Assembly: GCF_000002985.6 (NCBI RefSeq)
Contig: NC_003281.10
Location: forward strand, 13,020,001-13,084,000
Length of the DNA: 64,000 nt
Reading direction: 5' to 3'
From: Caenorhabditis elegans
Taxonomy: Eukaryota; Nematoda; Chromadorea; Rhabditida; Rhabditidae
The stretch's first letter is position 1. Every line of letters begins with the position of its first letter. The position numbers and the translations under genes were made by a program. Below, piece by piece: positions 48,780-64,000 of this stretch. The notes beneath the pieces are model-generated. The model saw only the letters and a program-made list of their open reading frames with translations. It had not been told where the DNA came from and ran no database searches.

Positions 48780-50560
48780 AATAGTTAAATACAAAATTGT
48801 TTTACTTTACAGTCCGTCAGAATTTTTATAGGTACCCTTCCGAAATCTAGAACTGCACAGGACCAAAGTACAGTAGATTACAATTTTCAGGAGGCCATTC
48901 GTTAAAATTTATGCTTCCAGGAATAAAGTTCACCCGTCCAGTAGAATTTATGCCAAGGAAGTAAAATTTTAAAAAAACTTAAAAATGGAGTAGCGCCAAA
49001 ATGACCGAATATCAATATACAACTTTTCAGAAATTTTTTAAAAAATTTTTATTTTCTGTCAAAATGTGACAATTATTCAGTTTTTGCCACTTTTTGGAAG
49101 TCGACCAAAAAAACAAATTTTTTTTTCTACATTTTTATACTTTAATTTTGTTTTAATTATTTATATTAAAACATTGTTGAAACATGCTCATATTTTTCAA
49201 AATTTTGGCAATTTGCCAAAATTTAGTCCGGAAATTATGAAAAATCTAGAATTTTTTGGAGTGTTTTATTATGGTATTCGATCGTTTTGGATCATTATAA
49301 GTGTATTTAGACCATTACTTCATGATCTTCATAGAGATTATTATTTTTATTTCAAAATGATTTTCACTGACGGATGTTTCAGAGCATACCAGACATTCTT
49401 AAGATAATTCCACTAATTTATTATTATTATTACATACATATACATAAACTATATAATTTAAATGTCTCTTTAAAAAATATTATTGTTATTCAGATGTCTG
49501 TATTTCTCTGTTCATCAGCGATAGAATACTACGTATCTCCACAATTCAGCCAAAGGCAGGCAGTATGGGGACAACTTGCAAAACAATCATTTTTGTGTGT
49601 GTTCGTTATCATCACATTGACCATAGTAATATGAATGTACATGTGTGTTTCACAAAACACAAAAAACATTTTTTTTTTTTTGAAATATATGTAACTCATG
49701 TGGGCGATATATTGTTTGATGTACAAAAAAATTTATCGAGTTTGGGCATAATTGGTGCCAAAAGGAAAAGCTTACAAAACTCATCAAACTGAAATGAATA
49801 CAGAACAAAAAAAATTATTTAATTGGCCAGACTCAATTTTGGAATATATAAAAGTTAAAGTTGGCCCAAAAATTCCTGCATTTTACATATTATTCTGACA
49901 AGAGCTGAGCAAGAAAGTTCCCATAAACAGCCAACACCTCAAAATTCAAAATTTCGTTTTGTTACTGTTTCACAAACATTTCGCCTCCTCGTTTTGTTTA
50001 AAATACAACACTACACAAAGATGAATCATATAGGGTTACCCTTATTGTGCTAAGGAGTATAATACTTTTAGCGAATTAATTTATATACATACATTATACT
50101 GTTCAGAAATTTCGACCCTTTTGTAATGGATTATTTTTTAAGTATCAATCGATATGTGAAATAAATTTTTTTTTTGTGCGAAAACTTTTTACCTGAAAAA
50201 TAGTAAAATACAAGATTTGACTAGTCAAACTATTTATATGGATATTTTACACCGACAATATCAATTATAACGTGCCCAAGTTTTCCCAATTTTTCCCAAT
50301 TTTTTCTAAACTTCCATGTAATATTATAATTTTTCAACAATTTTTCCGGAAAACAAGAGCGTAAGAAATGAGAACAGGCATAGAGGTTATCGATTCAACA
50401 ATCAAAAACATTTAGAACCTGAAACATACGCAATTTTGGAGGTTTTTCCACTGGAAGCAGCCGCATCATGGTGCACAAATCGATGAAAAGGAGGGAACGA
50501 AGAGACTGCTGGACAGCGAAATTAAACTTTTAAAAAACTTTCAGAATTTTGAATTTGACA
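48780..50560. other. Intergenic sequence left of the HEXIM-like gene
   Basis: Contains an AAAATGACCGAATATCAATA repeat copy (48988-49080) and AT-rich DNA. No supported exon. Confidence 0.4.
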
Positions 50561-50639
50561 GTCTCAGAGTGTTCTTTGTATTCTTGTCGGTCTAGTCATG
50601 TATTTTTCATCGAAATTCAGCAAGGATAAACCACTATTA

Positions 50640-51008
50640 TTTCCGTTCGGAAGATGGTGCGCGCTCGTCAAAAACGAGAGGCGGCGCTGCATTTGCGGAG
50701 GAATCGTCGCGTCGCGGTCGCGCGTCGTATATATAGAGACGCGGTCCAGTGCGATCTTTCTAGTTTGCAATCGGTGTGTCGCACGACGGCGCGCTGTGTT
50801 TGGTGCACTGAAGAAGAGAGCGCATTCACTCTCGCCTGCCTCCACAGAAGACGTGCACGCGCGCGCGCTTCCTCACAAGTGCTCGACGATTACGGTAGCG
50901 CTTGTAGAAGCACGCCACATCTAACAAAGACTAAATTGACTTCTAAATCCACCCCCTAAATAATTTGGGGTTCATTCGAAAGCGCTCGACAAGCTGTTTA
51001 TTACTATC
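50640..51008 (+). promoter_or_regulatory. GC-rich promoter / 5' UTR region of the HEXIM-like gene
   Basis: About 300 bp of CpG-containing sequence (GTCGCGTCGCGGTCGCGC) in an AT-rich neighbourhood, with TATATATA at 50728-50735. No acceptor precedes the ATG closely, so transcription probably starts here without nearby trans-splicing. Several overlapping open frames on both strands reflect base composition. Confidence 0.45.
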
Positions 51009-53583
51009 ATGGCCGATTATTACGGACTTTTTACTAGTGATACGAGATCCGTGTCTGACGGCGAGTCCGACGGTGAACGCCGACTTCGTAGAAGTCGTCG
51101 AAAACGCGGCGGCGGTCGTTTCAGACCCTACTCGCCAGACTATTCTGACGATGAGAAGACGAAGCCGACTAAGAAAAATCAGAAGAGACCTGACAAACAG
51201 GACAGGTAGGTGCTTGCTCGGAAAAGGAGACTGAACTTCATGGATGCCTGATGATCTAAAGTGTTACAAGTAGATTATTTAGCCAAAATATCTAGTTCAA
51301 GTATTTTCCTTTCGACCTTTTGTCCTTAACTAGTTCTTCACATTCCTTATAAAAAGTAGGTATATTCCTTTGTAATCCATCTCTTTCAGATTCGGAATGG
51401 CTCCACCCAACAGTACCCAGTTCTTATTAGAGGATCGTGAAGCGAGAGCAGATGCCGAGTTTGAGGTTAGAATACACAACACTGATAGTGATCTACCACA
51501 AACCAATTTGGCGGTTTGACTAGACCTCCAAAATTGTTGTTTCCGTCAAAATCTACTATGGAATTCAGTGTTACCACGTGATTCGCGTGACTTGAATCTG
51601 AATTCCAAAGTGCACTTCAAAATGCCCGGATTTTTGCCAAATTTCTTGAGAAGCCCCGTTTAGGGGTTCTGATTGTGATTCTGAAAAAAAATTTCAAAAA
51701 TCGATCAGAATCGAGCCGTTACGCCCGTGTGCAAACGCCACCTTCTTTTCTCTGCGTCTCTTCGTCTCCAATGCATCTAGTCCCCTCGGAAGAGTGAGCG
51801 GCCCGACTGGGGGCGACCTTATAATGAGATGGGAAGACGGAGAAAAAGGACGAGAGGAGAAGAAATTTGACGAGAATTGGGTGTCACGTTTTCTGAAAAA
51901 AAGAAGTGAAATTGCACCGTAGTCCAGTACGGTATCTCCACGAGATATCAGATCCTTTTTCCCGACCCTAACCCTAGATTTTCCAGAACGAGCAGAAATT
52001 CGAGGCTGCCGAGCGTCGCCGGGTCCGAACAATGAGCGGATCCTACGAGCATATGCGCCCGGCCTATTGGTGCACAATTGAGCCTGCAACAACGACGGCG
52101 GACTTTGGAAGCGACGACAACAACGATCTTGACAGCACCTCCGGTGAGAGCGAGGCCGATCGAGAGATGGAGCGAGAATTCGAGACCGACTACCTGGAAG
52201 TGAAGCGTGAACGGATTCAGAGTATGACTAGATCGCAGGTATGCGTTGTTTTGCGTTTTTAAAAGAGTGGGGGGGGGGGGAGGTGGAAAGAAGGGCTGGG
52301 AGAGAAGAGATGGAAAGTGAAAATGGAAATGGCTGTTGCTGGTTAATGGGGAGGGATGGTTACGGTATGTTCCGATACTTTTTCTGAAATTTTCAAATTC
52401 TCTGGAGCTGGGGTACAGCTATTTTCATTTTCTCATTCAAAAGAGAGGGTTACGGCAGATCATGTTTCATTTCCAAAAGTGATGAAATATGAATCAAGAC
52501 ACGATAATGCGTATTGCACAACATATTTGACGCGCAAAATATAACTATATCTCGTAGCGAGAACTACGGTAGTTTTTTAAATGACTACTGCAGTGCTTGT
52601 GTCGATTTACGGGCTCCATTTTTTAAATTAATTAATTGATTTATCAACAAAATATTTGTTTTGTAAAATGACAAAACAAGAAAAAACTAAGGAAAATGGA
52701 GTATCGCTGTCTCAAATAGCGCTTGTGTCGATTTACGGGATCAACAAATTTTTGAAACGAATTGTGGCATCGATATTCAGATGGCATCGATAAATCGAAC
52801 GGAAACTCTTTTTGTAAGCCATGCCCGTAAATGGACCCTACAGCACCGCCCGGCAAGTGGTACATCTATGCAAATGCGCTCTACTGATAATTTGGGTGTA
52901 GACCAGGTTTGGGCACTAAAAAAGTTTTGGGCCAAAAAATTTAGAATTTATTTTCGGACATTTTTTATATGCATCACAAAAAAACTGGGCCTCGGTCAGG
53001 TATACGGTAGACAAATTGCGTACGCTTGCCGGGCCGTGTGCAGTAGCCATTTAAAGAATTACTGTAGTTTTCGCTACGAGATATTTTGCGCGTCAATTAT
53101 GTTGCGCTAGACGCATTCTCAAAATTTTGTGTTTCCGCAATAGACCGTAGTTTTTATATTAGTCGTACCCCTTTTTGCTCGGATTTTACGAAATTTTTTG
53201 ATAAAACCAATGGCAGCCAAGATATGAACAAGGTAAAAAATAATTCTCACTACCATAACCCTCTCTTCTCATCTTGTTTTTTAAAAATATTTTTTTTAAA
53301 ATTTGTGGGCGTAGAATGAGCAACGGACAGGTAAGTGTCAGGCATAGGCGGAAAAAAAAAATTATTTCCCTGTACCAAGAACCCCACGTGAAATCTTATA
53401 GAGTCTGGCATCAGCTCCCCGCCCGACCATACAGAGACATAAAGAGAGTGATAAAGTGTTTGTGCCAGGAGAGATGAACACCTTCAGATGCCTTCAGACC
53501 TTCAGACCATCAGATCAGCATTCCAGAAATTTCAATATTTTTTCTCACTACTAGGACTTTTATTACACTCTACATACCATGCA

Positions 53584-53636
<53 letters not shown>

Positions 53637-54027
53637 CATCTATGGGTACTTACTGGCCGCCGCGCAGCTCATTCAAGACCTGACAGCTCGCCGAGCCTTA
53701 GCCCTAACATATATATTTGCTCATTGCTCATCACCATCATCATCACCGTTCAACGTTTTTTGCCCTCTCCCCGCCCCGTCTTTTGTTTTCTTCTTGTGCG
53801 GTACTCGCTATCTCTAACTAATATCAACATTTTTTCAGCTCGCCGCCGAACTTCTCGAGAGAGATCAGGACACGCAAGTTCTGACACGAGAGTTAGGATC
53901 CAAGGAGACCGAGAATCGACACCTTCGGAGCCTTCTCTCCGCACATGGGATCTCTCCGGATGAGCCAGTGACGTCGACCACAGCGATTGTAGTTGGACAG
54001 TCGAAATCACCAGTTGTTGCCAACTAA
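51009..54027 (+). CDS. HEXIM-family protein (predicted P-TEFb inhibitor of the 7SK snRNP)
   Basis: Exons 51009-51205, 51390-51465, 51987-52238 and 53839-54027 join in phase to 237 aa. Residues about 25-36 are an arginine-rich stretch (RRLRRSRRKR), the place of the HEXIM RNA-binding motif. Residues about 68-80 read GMAPPNSTQFLLED, matching vertebrate PYNTTQFLMDD. An acidic region (DFGSDDNNDLDSTSGESEAD) is followed by FETDYLEVKRERIQSMTRSQ, matching the FSETYERYHTESLQNMSKQE start of the HEXIM coiled coil, then a leucine-rich helix (LAAELLERDQ, ENRHLRSLLS). HEXIM binds 7SK RNA and inhibits CDK9-cyclin T, restraining Pol II elongation. The PYNT tyrosine is proline here (PPNS). Intron 3 (1.6 kb) carries repeats. 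The match is from memory of human HEXIM1, not an alignment. Confidence 0.82.
52269..52280 (+). repeat. Poly-G tract, 12 G, in HEXIM-like intron 3
   Basis: Uninterrupted run of 12 G on the sense strand, 30 nt after the exon 3 donor. Confidence 0.95.
52500..53135. repeat. Inverted repeat with 'CTCGTAGCGA' arms, copy 2, in HEXIM-like intron 3
   Basis: Left arm about 52505-52612 (TGCGTATTGCACAACATATT, CTCGTAGCGAGAACTACGG, CGATTTACGGGC), then the family spacer in reverse (AAGGAAAATGGAGTATCGCT), then about 280 bp of unrelated sequence, then the right arm at about 53040-53130. An expanded or interrupted member of the 46488 family. Confidence 0.8.
53590..53632 (+). repeat. (AT)n microsatellite
   Basis: About 20 AT dinucleotides after an ACATACATATAT lead-in, in HEXIM-like intron 3. 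Confidence 0.9.
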
Positions 54028-54159
54028 TTTACTCCCTTAAAAACGTAAAATTCCCCGCTTCCCCTTCGCAAAAAGTCTGCTAGTATTCCGGCTGTTTAAG
54101 AAAAATAAAAAATAATCCGGTAGTCGTTAATCCTAGACTTCATTTTATCCTGTTTTGTA

Positions 54160-54165
54160 AATAAA
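54160..54165 (+). terminator. Poly(A) signal of the HEXIM-like gene
   Basis: AATAAA 133 nt after the stop codon; an earlier AATAAA-like word near 54104 is an alternative. Confidence 0.6.
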
Positions 54166-54297
54166 AGCTCCATGCAAAAACAATGCACATGGGCTCTGGG
54201 GCAGATAGAGCACATTTGCATTGTTTTGAAAATCAATTTTTTCATGTTTTTAATCCTGTTCTTCTTCTTCTTTTTTTCAAGCACAAAACTTGTTCCA

Positions 54298-54315
54298 CCC
54301 CCCCCCCCCCCCCCC
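54298..54315 (+). repeat. Poly-C tract, 18 C
   Basis: Uninterrupted run of 18 C just downstream of the HEXIM-like gene. Confidence 0.95.
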
Positions 54316-54729
54316 TCATTTAGCATTTCCCTTGTTTCATTTTTCAATTTTTGATTTACTTGTTCTCCCTGAGGTCTCCCCCCGATTATGGGTACTGTTT
54401 CTTCCCTGAGGCTGGTACCTCCTTTTTATTCTTTTCGCTTCGAAACCCATCCCGTTAAAAAATCCTCATCATCCACGTGGTTTTTATACATTTTGGACAC
54501 GATGATCACTGCTTTTTTAGCATTACGGGTATCCTTTTTTTCGATGAATTCGAAATTCTCACCCATTCTTCCTCCCGATTATTTTTTTTTGTTGCCCTCG
54601 CCTGAACGTTTGTGTGCCCCTTTCGATCCACCGTCCTCTTTTGGTATTTTACACGAAAAAAATTGAAAACATGAAAAAATATATAAAATCATTAAACCTT
54701 TGTTATCTTGTCAACTCTACTGAAAAACT

Positions 54730-57700
54730 TGTTTAAAAAATTTGAAGATCAGAGCACATTTGAAATTCCATATTCTCCATAATTCTCAGTTTAAAAAAAT
54801 TTGAACATCAATACACATTTGAAATTCCATATTCTCCATAATTCTCAGTTTAAAAAAATTTGAAAATCAATGCACATTTGAAATTCCATATTCTCCATAA
54901 TTCTCAGTTAAAAAAAATTTGAACATCAATACACATTTGAAATTCCATATTCTCCATAATTCTCAGTTAAAAAAAATTTGAACATCAATACACATTTGAA
55001 ATTCCATATTCTCCATAATTCTCAGTTCAAAAAAATTTGAAAATCAGTGCACATTTGATATTCCATATTCTCCATAATTCTCAGTTTAAAAAAATTTGAA
55101 AACCAGTGCACATTTGAAATTCCATATTCTCCATAATTCTCAGTTTAAAAAAATTTGAAAAACAGTGCACATTTGATATTCCATATTCTCCATAATTCTC
55201 AGTTTAAAAAAATTTGAAAACCAGTGCACATTTGAAATTCCATATTCTCCATAATTCTCAGTTTAAAAAAATTTGAAAATCAATACACATTTGAAATTCC
55301 ATATTCTCCATAATTCTCAGTTTAAAAAAATTTGAAAAACAGTGCACATTTGATATTCCATATTCTCCATAATTCTCAGTTTAAAACAATTTGAAAACCA
55401 GTGCACATTTGAAATTCCATATTCTCCATAATTCTCAGTTTAAAACAATTTGAAAAACAGTGCACATTTGAAATTCCATATTCTCCATAATTCTCAGTTT
55501 AAAAAAATTTGAAAAACAGTGCACATTTGATATTCCATATTCTCCATAATTCTCAGTTTAAAAAAATTTGAAAAACAGTGCACATTTGAAATTCCATATT
55601 CTCCATAATTCTCAGTTTAAAACAATTTGAAAACCAGTGCACATTTGAAATTCCATATTCTCCATAATTCTCAGTTTAAAACAATTTGAAAAACAGTGCA
55701 CATTTGAAATTCCATATTCTCCATAATTCTCAGTTTAAAAAAATTTGAAAACCAGTGCACATTTGAAATTCCATATTCTCCATAATTCTCAGTTTAAAAA
55801 AATTTGAAAAACAGTGCACATTTGATATTCCATATTCTCCATAATTCTCAGTTTAAAACAATTTGAAAAACAGTGCACATTTGATATTCCATATTCTCCA
55901 TAATTCTCAGTTTAAAAAAATTTGAAAAACAGTGCACATTTGAAATTCCATATTCTCCATAATTCTCAGTTTAAAAAAATTTGAAAATCAATACACATTT
56001 GAAATTCCATATTCTCCATAATTCTCAGTTTAAAAAAATTTGAAAAACAGTGCACATTTGATATTCCATATTCTCCATAATTCTCAGTTTAAAACAATTT
56101 GAAAAACAGTGCACATTTGAAATTCCATATTCTCCATAATTCTCAGTTTAAAAAAATTTGAAAAACAGTGCACATTTGAAATTCCATATTCTCCATAATT
56201 CTCAGTTTAAAAAAATTTGAAAATCAATACACATTTGAAATTCCATATTCTCCATAATTCTCAGTTTAAAAAAATTTGAAAAACAGTGCACATTTGATAT
56301 TCCATATTCTCCATAATTCTCAGTTTAAAAAAATTTGAAAATCAATACACATTTGAAATTCCATATTCTCCATAATTCTCAGTTTGAAAAAATTTGAAAA
56401 ACAGTGCACATTTGAAATTCCATATTCTCCATAATTCTCAGTTTAAAAAAATTTGAAAATCAGTGCACATTTGAAATTCCATATTCTCCATAATTCTCAG
56501 TTTAAAAAAATTTGAAAAACAGTGCACATTTGATATTCCATATTCTCCATAATTCTCAGTTTAAAAAAATTTGAAAAACAGTGCACATTTGAAATTCCAT
56601 ATTCTCCATAATTCTCAGTTTAAAACAATTTGAAAAACAGTGCACATTTGAAATTCCATATTCTCCATAATTCTCAGTTTAAAAAAATTTGAAAAACAGT
56701 GCACATTTGAAATTCCATATTCTCCATAATTCTCAGTTTAAAACAATTTGAAAAACAGTGCACATTTGAAATTCCATATTCTCCATAATTCTCAGTTTAA
56801 AAAAATTTGAAAACCAGTGCACATTTGAAATTCCATATTCTCCATAATTCTCAGTTTAAAAAAATTTGAAAAATAGTGCACATTTGAACTTCCATATTCT
56901 CCATAATTCTCAGTTTAAAAAAATTTGAAAACCAGTGCACATTTGAAATTCCATATTCTCCATAATTCTCAGTTTAAAACAATTTGAAAAACAGTGCACA
57001 TTTGATATTCCATATTCTCCATAATTCTCAGTTTAAAACAATTTGAAAACCAGTGCACATTTGAAATTCCATATTCTCCATAATTCTCAGTTTAAAACAA
57101 TTTGAAAAACAGTGCACATTTGAAATTCCATATTCTCCATAATTCTCAGTTTAAAAAAATTTGAAAAACAGTGCACATTTGATATTCCATATTCTCCATA
57201 ATTCTCAGTTTAAAAAAATTTGAAAAACAGTGCACATTTGATATTCCATATTCTCCATAATTCTCAGTTTAAAACAATTTGAAAACCAGTGCACATTTGA
57301 AATTCCATATTCTCCATAATTCTCAGTTTAAAACAATTTGAAAAACAGTGCACATTTGAAATTCCATATTCTCCATAATTCTCAGTTTAAAAAAATTTGA
57401 AAATCAATACACATTTGAAATTCCATATTCTCCATAATTCTCAGTTTAAAAAAATTTGAACATCAATACACATTTGAAATTCCATATTCTCCATAATTCT
57501 CAGTTTAAAACAATTTGAAAAACAGTGCACATTTGAAATTCCATATTCTCCATAATTCTCAGTTTAAAAAAATTTGAAAAACAGTGCACATTTGATATTC
57601 CATATTCTCCATAATTCTCAGTTTAAAAAAATTTGAAAAACAGTGCACATTTGAAATTCCATATTCTCCATAATTCTCAGTTTAAAAAAATTTGAAAAAC

Positions 57701-60700
57701 AGTGCACATTTGATATTCCATATTCTCCATAATTCTCAGTTTAAAAAAATTTGAAAAACAGTGCACATTTGAAATTCCATATTCTCCATAATTCTCAGTT
57801 TAAAAAAATTTGAAAATCAATACACATTTGAAATTCCATATTCTCCATAATTCTCAGTTTAAAAAAATTTGAAAAACAGTGCACATTTGATATTCCATAT
57901 TCTCCATAATTCTCAGTTTGAAAAAATTTGAAAAACAGTGCACATTTGAAATTCCATATTCTCCATAATTCTCAGTTTAAAAAAATTTGAAAATCAATAC
58001 ACATTTGAAATTCCATATTCTCCATAATTCTCAGTTTAAAAAAATTTGAAAAACAGTGCACATTTGATATTCCATATTCTCCATAATTCTCAGTTTAAAA
58101 AAATTTGAAAAACAGTGCACATTTGAAATTCCATATTCTCCATAATTCTCAGTTTAAAACAATTTGAAAAACAGTGCACATTTGAAATTCCATATTCTCC
58201 ATAATTCTCAGTTTAAAAAAATTTGAAAATCAATACACATTTGAAATTCCATATTCTCCATAATTCTCAGTTTAAAAAAATTTGAAAACCAGTGCACATT
58301 TGAAATTCCATATTCTCCATAATTCTCAGTTTAAAAAAATTTGAAAAACAGTGCACATTTGATATTCCATATTCTCCATAATTCTCAGTTTAAAAAAATT
58401 TGAAAACCAGTGCACATTTGAAATTCCATATTCTCCATAATTCTCAGTTTAAAAAAATTTGAAAAACAGTGCACATTTGATATTCCATATTCTCCATAAT
58501 TCTCAGTTTAAAACAATTTGAAAACCAGTGCACATTTGAAATTCCATATTCTCCATAATTCTCAGTTTAAAAAAATTTGAAAAACAGTGCACATTTGATA
58601 TTCCATATTCTCCATAATTCTCAGTTTAAAAAAATTTGAAAATCAGTGCACATTTGAAATTCCATATTCTCCATAATTCTCAGTTTAAAAAAATTTGAAA
58701 ACCAGTGCACATTTGAAATTCCATATTCTCCATAATTCTCAGTTTAAAAAAATTTGAAAATCAATACACATTTGAAATTCCATATTCTCCATAATTCTCA
58801 GTTTAAAAAAATTTGAAAATCAGTGCACATTTGAAATTCCATATTCTCCATAATTCTCAGTTTAAAAAAATTTGAAAAACAGTGCACATTTGAAATTCCA
58901 TATTCTCCATAATTCTCAGTTCAAAAAAATTTGAAAATCAGTGCACATTTGATATTCCATATTCTCCATAATTCTCAGTTTAAAAAAATTTGAAAACCAG
59001 TGCACATTTGAAATTCCATATTCTCCATAATTCTCAGTTTAAAACAATTTGAAAAACAGTGCACATTTGAAATTCCATATTCTCCATAATTCTCAGTTTA
59101 AAAAAATTTGAAAACCAGTGCACATTTGAAATTCCATATTCTCCATAATTCTCAGTTTAAAACAATTTGAAAAACAGTGCACATTTGAAATTCCATATTC
59201 TCCATAATTCTCAGTTTAAAAAAATTTGAAAAACAGTGCACATTTGAAATTCCATATTCTCCATAATTCTCAGTTTAAAAACATTTGAAAAACAGTGCAC
59301 ATTTGAAATTCCATATTCTCCATAATTCTCAGTTTAAAAAAATTTGAAAAACAGTGCACATTTGAAATTCCATATTCTCCATAATTCTCAGTTTAAAAAC
59401 ATTTGAAAAACAGTGCACATTTGAAATTCCATATTCTCCATAATTCTCAGTTTAAAAAAATTTGAAAATCAATACACATTTGAACTTCCATATTCTCCAT
59501 AATTCTCAGTTTAAAAAAATTTGAAAAACAGTGCACATTTGAAATTCCATATTCTCCATAATTCTCAGTTTAAAAACATTTGAAAAACAGTGCACATTTG
59601 AAATTCCATATTCTCCATAATTCTCAGTTTAAAAAAATTTGAAAAACAGTGCACATTTGAAATTCCATATTCTCCATAATTCTCAGTTTAAAAAAATTTG
59701 AAAAACAGTGCACATTTGAAATTCCATATTCTCCATAATTCTCAGTTTAAAAACATTTGAAAATCAATACACATTTGAAATTCCATATTCTCCATAATTC
59801 TCAGTTTAAAAAAATTTGAAAAACAGTGCACATTTGAAATTCCATATTCTCCATAATTCTCAGTTTAAAAAAATTTGAAAAACAGTGCACATTTGAAATT
59901 CCATATTCTCCATAATTCTCAGTTTAAAAAAATTTGAAAAACAGTGCACATTTGAAATTCCATATTCTCCATAATTCACAGTTTAAAAAAATTTGAAAAA
60001 CAGTGCACATTTGAAATTCCATATTCTCCATAATTCTCAGTTTAAAAAAATTTGAAAAACAGTGCACATTTGATATTCATATTCTCCATAATTCTCAGTT
60101 TAAAAAAATTTGAAAAACAGTGCACATTTGATATTCCATATTCTCCATAATTCTCAGTTTAAAAAAATTTGAAAACCAGTGCACATTTGAAATTCCATAT
60201 TCTCCATAATTCTCAGTTTAAAACAATTTGAAAATCAATACACATTTGAAATTCCATATTCTCCATAATTCTCAGTTTAAAAAAATTTGAAAATCAATAC
60301 ACATTTGAAATTCCATATTCTCCATAATTCTCAGTTTAAAAAAATTTGAAAATCAATACACATTTGAAATTCCATATTCTCCATAATTCTCAGTTTAAAA
60401 AAATTTGAAAATCAATACACATTTGAAATTCCATATTCTCCATAATTCTCAGTTTAAAAAAATTTGAAAATCAATACACATTTGAAATTCCATATTCTCC
60501 ATAATTCTCCGTTTAAAAAAATTTGAAAAACAGTGCACATTTGATATTCCATATTCTCCATAATTCTCAGTTTAAAAAAATTTGAAAAACAGTGCACATT
60601 TGAAATTCCATATTCTCCATAATTCTCAGTTTAAAAAAATTTGAAAAACAGTGCACATTTGATATTCCATATTCTCCATAATTCTCAGTTTAAAAAAATT

Positions 60701-63700
60701 TGAAAAACAGTGCACATTTGAAATTCCATATTCTCCATAATTCTCAGTTTAAAAAAATTTGAAAAACAGTGCACATTTGAAATTCCATATTCTCCATAAT
60801 TCTCAGTTTAAAAAAATTTGAAAAACAGTGCACATTTGATATTCCATATTCTCCATAATTCTCAGTTTAAAAAAATTTGAAAAACAGTGCACATTTGAAA
60901 TTCCATATTCTCCATAATTCTCAGTTTAAAAAAATTTGAAAATCAATACACATTTGAAATTCCATATTCTCCATAATTCTCAGTTTAAAAAAATTTGAAA
61001 AACAGTGCACATTTGATATTCCATATTCTCCATAATTCTCAGTTTAAAACAATTTGAAAAACAGTGCACATTTGAAATTCCATATTCTCCATAATTCTCA
61101 GTTTAAAAAAATTTGAAAATCAATACACATTTGAAATTCCATATTCTCCATAATTCTCCGTTTAAAAAAATTTGAAAAACAGTGCACATTTGATATTCCA
61201 TATTCTCCATAATTCTCAGTTTAAAAAAATTTGAAAAACAGTGCACATTTGATATTCCATATTCTCCATAATTCTCAGTTTAAAAAAATTTGAAAATCAG
61301 TGCACATTTGAAATTCCATATTCTCCATAATTCTCAGTTTAAAAAAATTTGAAAATCAATACACATTTGAAATTCCATATTCTCCATAATTCTCAGTTTA
61401 AAAAAATTTGAAAAACAGTGCACATTTGATATTCCATATTCTCCATAATTCTCAGTTTAAAACAATTTGAAAACCAGTGCACATTTGAAATTCCATATTC
61501 TCCATAATTCTCAGTTTAAAACAATTTGAAAAACAGTGCACATTTGAAATTCCATATTCTCCATAATTCTCAGTTAAAAAAAATTTGAAAACCAGTGCAC
61601 ATTTGAAATTCCATATTCTCCATAATTCTCAGTTTAAAACAATTTGAAAAACAGTGCACATTTGAAATTCCATATTCTCCATAATTCTCAGTTTAAAAAA
61701 ATTTGAAAAACAGTGCACATTTGAAATTCCATATTCTCCATAATTCTCAGTTTAAAAAAATTTGAAAATCAATACACATTTGAAATTCCATATTCTCCAT
61801 AATTCTCAGTTTAAAAAAATTTGAAAATCAATACACATTTGAAATTCCATATTCTCCATAATTCTCCGTTTAAAAAAATTTGAAAAACAGTGCACATTTG
61901 ATATTCCATATTCTCCATAATTCTCAGTTTAAAAAAATTTGAAAAACAGTGCACATTTGATATTCCATATTCTCCATAATTCTCAGTTTAAAACAATTTG
62001 AAAAACAGTGCACATTTGAAATTCCATATTCTCCATAATTCTCAGTTTAAAAAAATTTGAAAACCAGTGCACATTTGAAATTCCATATTCTCCATAATTC
62101 TCAGTTTAAAAAAATTTGAAAATCAATACACATTTGAAATTCCATATTCTCCATAATTCTCAGTTTAAAAAAATTTGAAAAACAGTGCACATTTGATATT
62201 CCATATTCTCCATAATTCTCAGTTTAAAAAAATTTGAAAATCAATACACATTTGAAATTCCATATTCTCCATAATTCTCAGTTTAAAAAAATTTGAAAAT
62301 CAGTACACATTTGAAATTCCATATTCTCCATAATTCTCCGTTTAAAAAAATTTGAAAAACAGTGCACATTTGATATTCCATATTCTCCATAATTCTCAGT
62401 TTAAAAAAATTTGAAAAAAAGTGAAAATTTGGAATTCCATATTCTCCATAATTCTCAGGTTTAAAAAATTTGAAAATCAATAAAAATTTGGAATTCCATA
62501 TTCTCCATAATTCTCAGGTTAAAAAAATTTGAAAAACAGGGGACATTTGGAATTTCATAATCTCCATAATTCTCCGGTTTAAAAAATTTGAAAACAATAA
62601 AAAATTTGAACTTCCATATTCTCCATAATTCTCAGGTTAAAAAAATTTGGAAAACAGTGCAACTTTGGAATTCCATATTCTCCATAATTCTCAGTTAAAA
62701 AATTTGAAAAACAGTGCACATTTGAAATCCATATTCTCCATAATTCTCAGTTTAAAAAAATTTGAAAAACAGTGCACATTTGATATTCCATATTCTCCAT
62801 AATTCTCAGTTTAAAACAATTTGAAAAACAGTGCACATTTGAAATTCCATATTCTCCATAATTCTCAGTTTAAAAAAATTTGAAAACCAGTGCACATTTG
62901 AAATTCCATATTCTCCATAATTCTCAGTTTAAAACAATTTGAAAAACAGTGCACATTTGAAATTCCATATTCTCCATAATTCTCAGTTTAAAACAATTTG
63001 AAAAACAGTGCACATTTGAAATTCCATATTCTCCATAATTCTCAGTTTAAAAAAATTTGAAAAACAGTGCACATTTGAAATTCCATATTCTCCATAATTC
63101 TCAGTTTAAAAAAATTTGAAAAACAGTGCACATTTGATATTCCATATTCTCCATAATTCTCAGTTTAAAACAATTTGAAAACCAGTGCACATTTGAAATT
63201 CCATATTCTCCATAATTCTCAGTTTAAAACAATTTGAAAAACAGTGCACATTTGAAATTCCATATTCTCCATAATTCTCAGTTTAAAAAAATTTGAAAAA
63301 CAGTGCACATTTGATATTCCATATTCTCCATAATTCTCAGTTTAAAAAAATTTGAAAAACAGTGCACATTTGAAATTCCATATTCTCCATAATTCTCAGT
63401 TTAAAAAAATTTGAAAATCAATACACATTTGAACTTCCATATTCTCCATAATTCTCAGTTTAAAAAAATTTGAAAATCAGTGCACATTTGAAATTCCATA
63501 TTCTCCATAATTCTCAGTTTAAAAAAATTTGAAAAACAGTGCACATTTGAAATTCCATATTCTCCATAATTCTCAGTTTAAAAAAATTTGAAAAACAGTG
63601 CACATTTGAAATTCCATATTCTCCATAATTCTCAGTTTAAAAAAATTTGAAAAACAGTGCACATTTGAAATTCCATATTCTCCATAATTCTCAGTTTAAA

Positions 63701-64000
63701 AAAATTTGAAAAACAGTGCACATTTGAAATTCCATATTCTCCATAATTCTCAGTTTAAAAAAATTTGAAAAACAGTGCACATTTGAAATTCCATATTCTC
63801 CATAATTCTCAGTTTAAAAAAATTTGAAAAACAGTGCACATTTGAAATTCCATATTCTCCATAATTCTCAGTTTAAAAAAATTTGAAAAACAGTGCACAT
63901 TTGATATTCCATATTCTCCATAATTCTCAGTTTAAAACAATTTGAAAAACAGTGCACATTTGAAATTCCATATTCTCCATAATTCTCAGTTTAAAAAAAT
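54730..64000. repeat. 59-bp satellite array, about 157 copies, continues past window
   Basis: The unit contains CAGTTTAAAAAAATTTGAAA, then ACAGTGCACATTTGAAATTC and CATATTCTCCATAATTCT. It repeats with a strict 59-bp period for 9.27 kb. Variation is confined mainly to three places: TTTAAAAAAATTT or TTTAAAACAATTT; AACAGTGC, ACCAGTGC, ATCAGTGC or ATCAATAC; and TTGAAATT, TTGATATT or TTGAACTT. The left edge is enriched in an ACATCAATAC variant. There is one single-base deletion at about 60075 (GATATTCATATTC) and one noisy zone at 62400-62740. Not coding and not CRISPR: there are no unique spacers. Confidence 0.98.

What the first reader, a model, noticed from the sequence alone, without database searches (positions are those of the whole stretch)
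51009..54027. A HEXIM-like P-TEFb inhibitor in a nematode, with the PYNT motif altered to PPNS
The protein has the HEXIM order: basic RNA-binding stretch, xPxNSTQFLLED, acidic patch, then the FExxYLEVKRERIQSM coiled-coil start. The two most conserved HEXIM blocks are on separate exons and in the right order. In human HEXIM1 the PYNT tyrosine and threonine and the downstream Phe are important for CDK9 inhibition; here the Tyr is Pro and the Thr is Ser, while the Phe is kept. The coiled coil is shorter (237 aa in total against about 359 in HEXIM1). It may inhibit CDK9 by a changed contact or have a different target.
Basis: partly seen in the sequence, partly recalled or inferred. Interest (0 to 1): 0.78.

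Follow-up and report, generated by a model that had tools for sequence, protein, structure and literature searches.

The report
Known worm HEXIM with altered motif
This is the roundworm's own version of HEXIM, a protein that in other animals restrains the enzyme releasing RNA polymerase; it was already described, but its enzyme-contact motif changed in two steps in one branch of the nematodes, which makes one wonder how the brake works there.

Summary
A four-exon gene at 51009-54027 (+) with GT/AG junctions encodes 237 aa matching Pfam HEXIM over the whole model (82.9 bits, E 3.4e-23). The protein equals a C. elegans database entry, there named "Smad nuclear-interacting protein 1". Published qPCR primers for Y39E4B.6 match exon 4 exactly.

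It is already known: Verstraete et al. 2014 (PMC4227133, section 8) showed by two-hybrid that ceHexim binds cyclin T CIT-1.2 and that F156L abolishes this; F156 is Phe in this model.

What I add is the motif's history. Of 143 proteins held (from capped lists), 116 read PYNT, 14 PSNT, 9 PPNS, 4 unmatched. A 40-row tree needs two changes: Tyr-to-Ser once at the base of the clade-V-type rows, PPNS once within Caenorhabditis after C. bovis. The basic-region-to-PYNT spacer is 34 residues in 109 of 113 measurable PYNT rows and in 0 of 9 PPNS rows. The PPNS block is nearly invariant in those nine (14 of 15 columns), so it looks remodelled rather than decayed. Inhibition of worm CDK-9 and a worm 7SK RNA remain unproven.

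The parts
51009..51205 (+). Exon 1: start codon, Ser/acidic patch, basic (RNA-binding-type) region
   Evidence: splice model; identical to P0001
51078..51128 (+). Basic region, aa 24-40 (RRLRRSRRKRGGGRFRP)
   Evidence: Translation; 12 of 17 columns invariant in 9 Caenorhabditis
51390..51465 (+). Exon 2: carries the PYNT-equivalent block
51403..51414 (+). PPNS, aa 71-74, in place of PYNT
   Evidence: aligned; block aa 69-83 has 14 of 15 columns invariant in 9 Caenorhabditis
51987..52238 (+). Exon 3: post-PPNS helix, RxRxxS, acidic stretch, cyclin-T-binding start
   Evidence: the only exon that matches PF15313 alone
52020..52037 (+). RVRTMS, aa 103-108: R-x-R-x-x-S (AGC-kinase-type consensus, recalled)
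   Evidence: present in 9 of 9 PPNS and 14 of 14 PSNT rows
52170..52232 (+). Cyclin-T-binding start of the coiled-coil domain, aa 153-173, with F156
   Evidence: F156L abolishes binding to CIT-1.2 in two-hybrid (PMC4227133)
53839..54027 (+). Exon 4: most of the coiled-coil helix (aa 176-210) and tail, stop codon
   Evidence: helix 173-210 predicted, pLDDT about 92-95; Y39E4B.6 qPCR primers at 53907-53926 and 53995-54014

Best explanation
It is the C. elegans HEXIM orthologue (ceHexim, Y39E4B.6). Most likely it works as other HEXIMs do: it dimerises through the C-terminal coiled coil, docks on cyclin T (CIT-1.1/1.2) through the FETDY start of that domain, and places the stretch around PPNSTQFLL in the CDK-9 catalytic cleft. 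Shown elsewhere: binding to CIT-1.2 and its dependence on F156. Shown here: family membership, conservation of the blocks, the history of the motif. Inferred: dimerisation, kinase inhibition, RNA control. I infer that N73, T75, Q76, F77 carry the kinase contact in this lineage, that Ser74 replaces Thr by keeping a hydroxyl, and that the lost Tyr and the lost spacer helix mainly alter the self-masking of the motif (in human HEXIM1 the PYNT motif is the hub of inter-monomer autoinhibition).
For: Pfam HEXIM full-length match; profile match of the HEXIM alignment A2 to human HEXIM1 structures; two-hybrid data and F156L in PMC4227133 section 8, F156 present. N73, T75, Q76, F77, L78, L79 are invariant in the 17 aligned clade-V-type rows and PPNS block columns 14 of 15 invariant in 9 Caenorhabditis while the spacer aa 41-68 has 5 of 28. 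Label PYNT/PSNT/PPNS needs only 2 changes on a 40-row tree, both branches 100/99. PYNT as autoinhibition hub and helix 171-194 in human: passages of PMC12901311; PYNT to CDK9 T-loop: passages of PMC10083321. Predicted helix lies before PYNT in P0031 (121-144, pLDDT blocks 78-87) but after PPNS in the worm (76-107, pLDDT blocks 59-76), whose spacer is coil with pLDDT blocks 44-49.
Against: No kinase assay of the worm protein was seen. Rfam 7SK gave no match in this genome at E up to 10, without a positive control. The worm 7SK candidate is disputed. Overall identity to PYNT-type relatives is about 30% outside the core, and the PDB search with the clade-V profile finds HEXIM1 only at E 0.075. 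The two structure models rest on shallow alignments (17 and 14 rows) and have pTM 0.30 and 0.31.
Confidence: 0.8

Rival explanations
1. A HEXIM that binds cyclin T but no longer blocks the kinase: with the PYNT Tyr and Thr changed it acts as a P-TEFb tether or carrier.
For: PYNT is otherwise invariant in 116 of the 139 rows with a readable motif, and human T205D (PYND) impairs binding and repression (passages). Only cyclin T binding has been shown for the worm.
Against: The block is among the most conserved of the protein in Caenorhabditis, TQFLL with the Phe is kept, and Thr to Ser is mild; a merely decayed motif would drift.
Confidence: 0.12
2. Not a HEXIM but a coiled-coil protein of another kind, as its database name Smad nuclear-interacting protein 1 suggests.
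For: The name; weak single-sequence match to solved HEXIM1.
Against: Only Pfam family reported is HEXIM, full length; no FHA domain reported (an FHA domain in SNIP1 is recalled); a graded series of relatives joins it to named HEXIMs.
Confidence: 0.02
3. The reading of PPNS is an artefact of assembly or gene model.
For: I saw no cDNA.
Against: The same letters in 9 of 9 PPNS-group Caenorhabditis proteins from separate records and inside one exon (51403-51414).
Confidence: 0.01

Closest known systems
ceHexim / Y39E4B.6 of C. elegans (Verstraete et al. 2014, PMC4227133; Marz et al. 2009, cited there, not seen)
   Same: Same gene to the extent I can tell: residue F156 fits, and primers printed for Y39E4B.6 lie in exon 4. 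That paper aligns its PYNT region with human and fly HEXIM (legend and text read; figure not held).
   Different: Nothing in the object itself. New here is the phylogenetic placing of the motif change and the spacer measurement.
Human HEXIM1
   Same: Basic region, PYNT-like block with downstream Phe, acidic stretch, cyclin-T-binding start of a C-terminal coiled coil.
   Different: PPNS for PYNT; shorter and variable spacer (29 residues here; 34 in 109 of 113 measurable PYNT rows held); shorter predicted coiled coil; shorter N-terminus.
HEXIM of hookworms and other strongylids (for example P0013 Necator)
   Same: Tyr of PYNT also lost; RxRxxS also present.
   Different: PSNT, Thr kept; spacer 34 in four rows.

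Membership tests
HEXIM (PF15313) | Profile match over the curated cut-off | tested here: met
   82.9 bits against 29, model 1-142 of 142
HEXIM (PF15313) | Basic region before the PYNT block | tested here: met
   aa 24-40, RRLRRSRRKRGGGRFRP, aligned with basic regions of other HEXIMs
HEXIM (PF15313) | PYNT motif, letter for letter | tested here: not met
   PPNS. I do not treat this as excluding membership: the flanking TQFLLED block is intact, and a supported tree shows the two steps from PYNT
HEXIM (PF15313) | C-terminal cyclin-T-binding, dimerising coiled coil | tested here: inconclusive
   Helices 147-170 and 173-210 predicted with high pLDDT in a monomer model; dimer not modelled. Cyclin T binding is published
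HEXIM (PF15313) | Binds 7SK RNA | not testable with these tools
   Rfam 7SK: no match in this genome, no positive control; worm 7SK disputed in print
HEXIM (PF15313) | Inhibits CDK9 | not testable with these tools
   Needs a kinase assay
SNIP1 (the name given in a database) | FHA domain (recalled) | tested here: not met
   Only PF15313 reported at E up to 10

The most novel reading that the evidence does not exclude
In Caenorhabditis the HEXIM switch has been rebuilt. The PYNT Tyr was lost at the base of clade V, then Thr and the fixed-length spacer helix were lost within the genus, so that the RNA-released self-masking described for human HEXIM1 is weakened or gone; control may have passed from a canonical 7SK RNA to phosphorylation at the conserved R-x-R-x-x-S (S108), in an animal reported to lack NELF.
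Probability: 0.2. Interest if true: 0.65.

Novelty: already known. Interest (0 to 1): 0.35.

Why it matters
C. elegans is reported to have lost NELF (passages of PMC11482795) and its 7SK RNA is disputed, yet it keeps a HEXIM whose motif block is nearly invariant in its genus. That makes it a test of what HEXIM does without canonical pausing. The stepwise PYNT, PSNT, PPNS series supplies natural variants, in intact proteins, for asking which residues mask the motif and which block the kinase.

Tried and rejected
Different target than P-TEFb: not favoured, because CIT-1.2 binding is published. Motif decay: rejected, block conserved. SNIP1: rejected. Structured RNA in the 5' region 50740-50960: no support, z -0.36, 69 of 200 shuffles fold as well; Rfam over 50300-54800 gave 20 matches up to E 5, none reaching its family's gathering score, most on the AT repeat near 53580. 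Repeat of 50600-51010 elsewhere in the genome: only itself. Partners in the genome: Bin3/MEPCE-type domain found as two exon matches at one place on C2; La domain at three places, which of them if any is LARP7 not determined; NELF-B (COBRA1) and NELF-C/D (TH1) no match, but no control genome rang either, so absence is not shown. A last script tried to list the F156-equivalent motif by a regular expression in 23 rows and matched none because the pattern was wrong; I do not use it, the alignment shows F156 in all 17 rows.

Limits: one search scored only the 7992 candidates sharing most words; one search found 487 proteins and listed 120. The 143 proteins held are therefore a capped set. No named Strongyloides, Bursaphelenchus, Meloidogyne or Pristionchus protein is among those listed, so the exact branch of the Tyr loss is open. 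The tree used 40 of 143 rows, chosen by me: 9 of 9 PPNS, 9 of 14 PSNT (P0016-P0019 and P0021 left out), 22 of 116 PYNT; the 4 unmatched rows were left out. In the tree P0031 and P0032, unnamed, do not group with the other nematodes.

Full report
Identity. The window lies at C3:13,020,001-13,084,000 of a 100,286,401-base genome in 7 contigs, which is the size of the C. elegans reference (recalled). Four exons, 51009-51205, 51390-51465, 51987-52238 and 53839-54027, join at GT/AG sites into a 237-aa frame, identical to protein P0001 of C. elegans, recorded on a 13,783,801-base contig under the name Smad nuclear-interacting protein 1. Pfam HEXIM matches it over the whole model (82.9 bits, E 3.4e-23) and gives one match in the genome. 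Primers printed for Y39E4B.6 in PMC6048318 (one passage seen) match exon 4 exactly. By single-sequence phmmer the protein does not find human HEXIM1 in the PDB; the clade-V profile A1 finds it at E 0.075, below an unrelated H-NS match; the broader profile A2 finds it at E 2.8e-11.

Prior knowledge. PMC4227133 (section 8 read in full, other passages seen; [quoted passage not shown] Position 156 is Phe here. Marz et al. 2009 is cited there for nematode HEXIM and 7SK; I did not see it. The gene is therefore known. My literature searches covered only the open-licence library; in the passages I read I found no discussion of the PPNS change, but Figure 3B of PMC4227133 should show it.

History of the motif. 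Of 143 proteins held after three searches (lists capped, 120 of 487 shown), 116 read PYNT, 14 PSNT, 9 PPNS and 4 were unmatched (P0020, P0022, P0036 lack the stretch; P0108 reads PYNTTQY). PPNS: seven named and two unnamed proteins, the named ones all Caenorhabditis (C. elegans, remanei, tropicalis, brenneri, nigoni, sp. 36, japonica). PSNT: Nippostrongylus (two), Ostertagia, Necator, Diploscapter, Angiostrongylus (two), Dictyocaulus, Strongylus, Ancylostoma, C. bovis, Auanema, and two unnamed. On a 40-row tree the three labels need two changes, the least possible; the PSNT+PPNS group and the PPNS group each have support 100/99, and C. bovis (PSNT) branches next to the nine PPNS rows at 99/96.

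Spacer. Counting residues between the aromatic-x-Pro-x end of the basic region and the motif, 109 of 113 measurable PYNT rows have exactly 34 and 4 have 28 (3 not measurable). PSNT rows: 34 in 4 of 10 measurable, others 23-30 (4 not measurable; P0017, with 30, may be a gene-model fault, inference). PPNS rows: 19, 24, 25, 25, 26, 29, 29, 31, 36, none 34. In human HEXIM1 this stretch holds a helix (171-194; passages of PMC12901311). AlphaFold models from shallow alignments place a helix there in the PYNT-type P0031 (121-144, pLDDT blocks 78-87), but in the worm the spacer is coil (pLDDT blocks 44-49) and a helix of medium confidence follows the motif instead (76-107, pLDDT blocks 59-76). Both have low pTM (0.30, 0.31).

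Constraint. Within the nine PPNS proteins, block 69-83 has 14 of 15 columns invariant, basic region 24-40 12 of 17, cyclin-T start 153-173 14 of 21, coiled coil 174-214 27 of 41, against 5 of 28 in the spacer 41-68 and 3 of 40 in 113-152. The new motif is thus kept; the spacer is free.

A further conserved point. R-x-R-x-x-S (aa 103-108) stands between motif and coiled coil in 9 of 9 PPNS and 14 of 14 PSNT rows, with chance about 0.10 and 0.12 per sequence by shuffling, and in 44 of 116 PYNT rows, chance 0.02 (rows are related, so not independent). Of 23 PYNT rows that I picked as nematode or possibly so, 11 have it; 6 filarial and 6 Trichuris/Trichinella rows do not. It fits the AGC-kinase consensus (recalled). 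No phosphorylation data were seen.

Mechanism. In human HEXIM1 the PYNT motif is reported to contact CDK9 and mask its substrate site (passages of PMC10083321), to be the hub of inter-monomer autoinhibition, and to be freed by 7SK binding to the basic region (passages of PMC12901311); T205D impairs P-TEFb binding and repression (passages of PMC1183248). F208 and Kobbi et al. 2016 are recalled; that paper is not held. The worm keeps N, T, Q, F and the cyclin-T start, so I judge inhibition of CDK-9 by the same route most likely, with a changed masking step.

RNA and pausing context. Rfam 7SK found nothing in this genome at E up to 10; weak hits in 3 of 14 prokaryote controls were below the cut-off, and there was no positive control. 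PMC8406779 (passages) says that a Caenorhabditis 7SK candidate is debated as a possible U8 homologue, but elsewhere in the same paper that two 7SK copies were found in C. elegans with one seen by Northern blot; I could not check the sources. C. elegans is reported to have lost NELF-B and -C/D (PMC11482795 passages); my own searches for these were silent, but so were the controls.

Noticed in passing
window 54731-64000: A 59-bp tandem repeat of about 157 copies (96% matches) starts about 700 bases downstream of the gene and runs off the window's end.
   Followed up: no
window 50640-50960: The region upstream of the start codon resembles, by eye, the N-terminal part of P0020, an ORF on a 1037-base unnamed contig that runs into a remanei-like exon 1; in C. 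elegans that stretch is in another frame, so this points to DNA-level conservation of promoter or 5' UTR. It holds TATATATAG near 50728. No structured RNA found.
   Followed up: partly
window 52020-52037: R-x-R-x-x-S (aa 103-108) conserved in 23 of 23 PPNS and PSNT rows, a possible AGC-kinase site.
   Followed up: partly
database entry P0001: The public name Smad nuclear-interacting protein 1 does not fit the Pfam result.
   Followed up: yes
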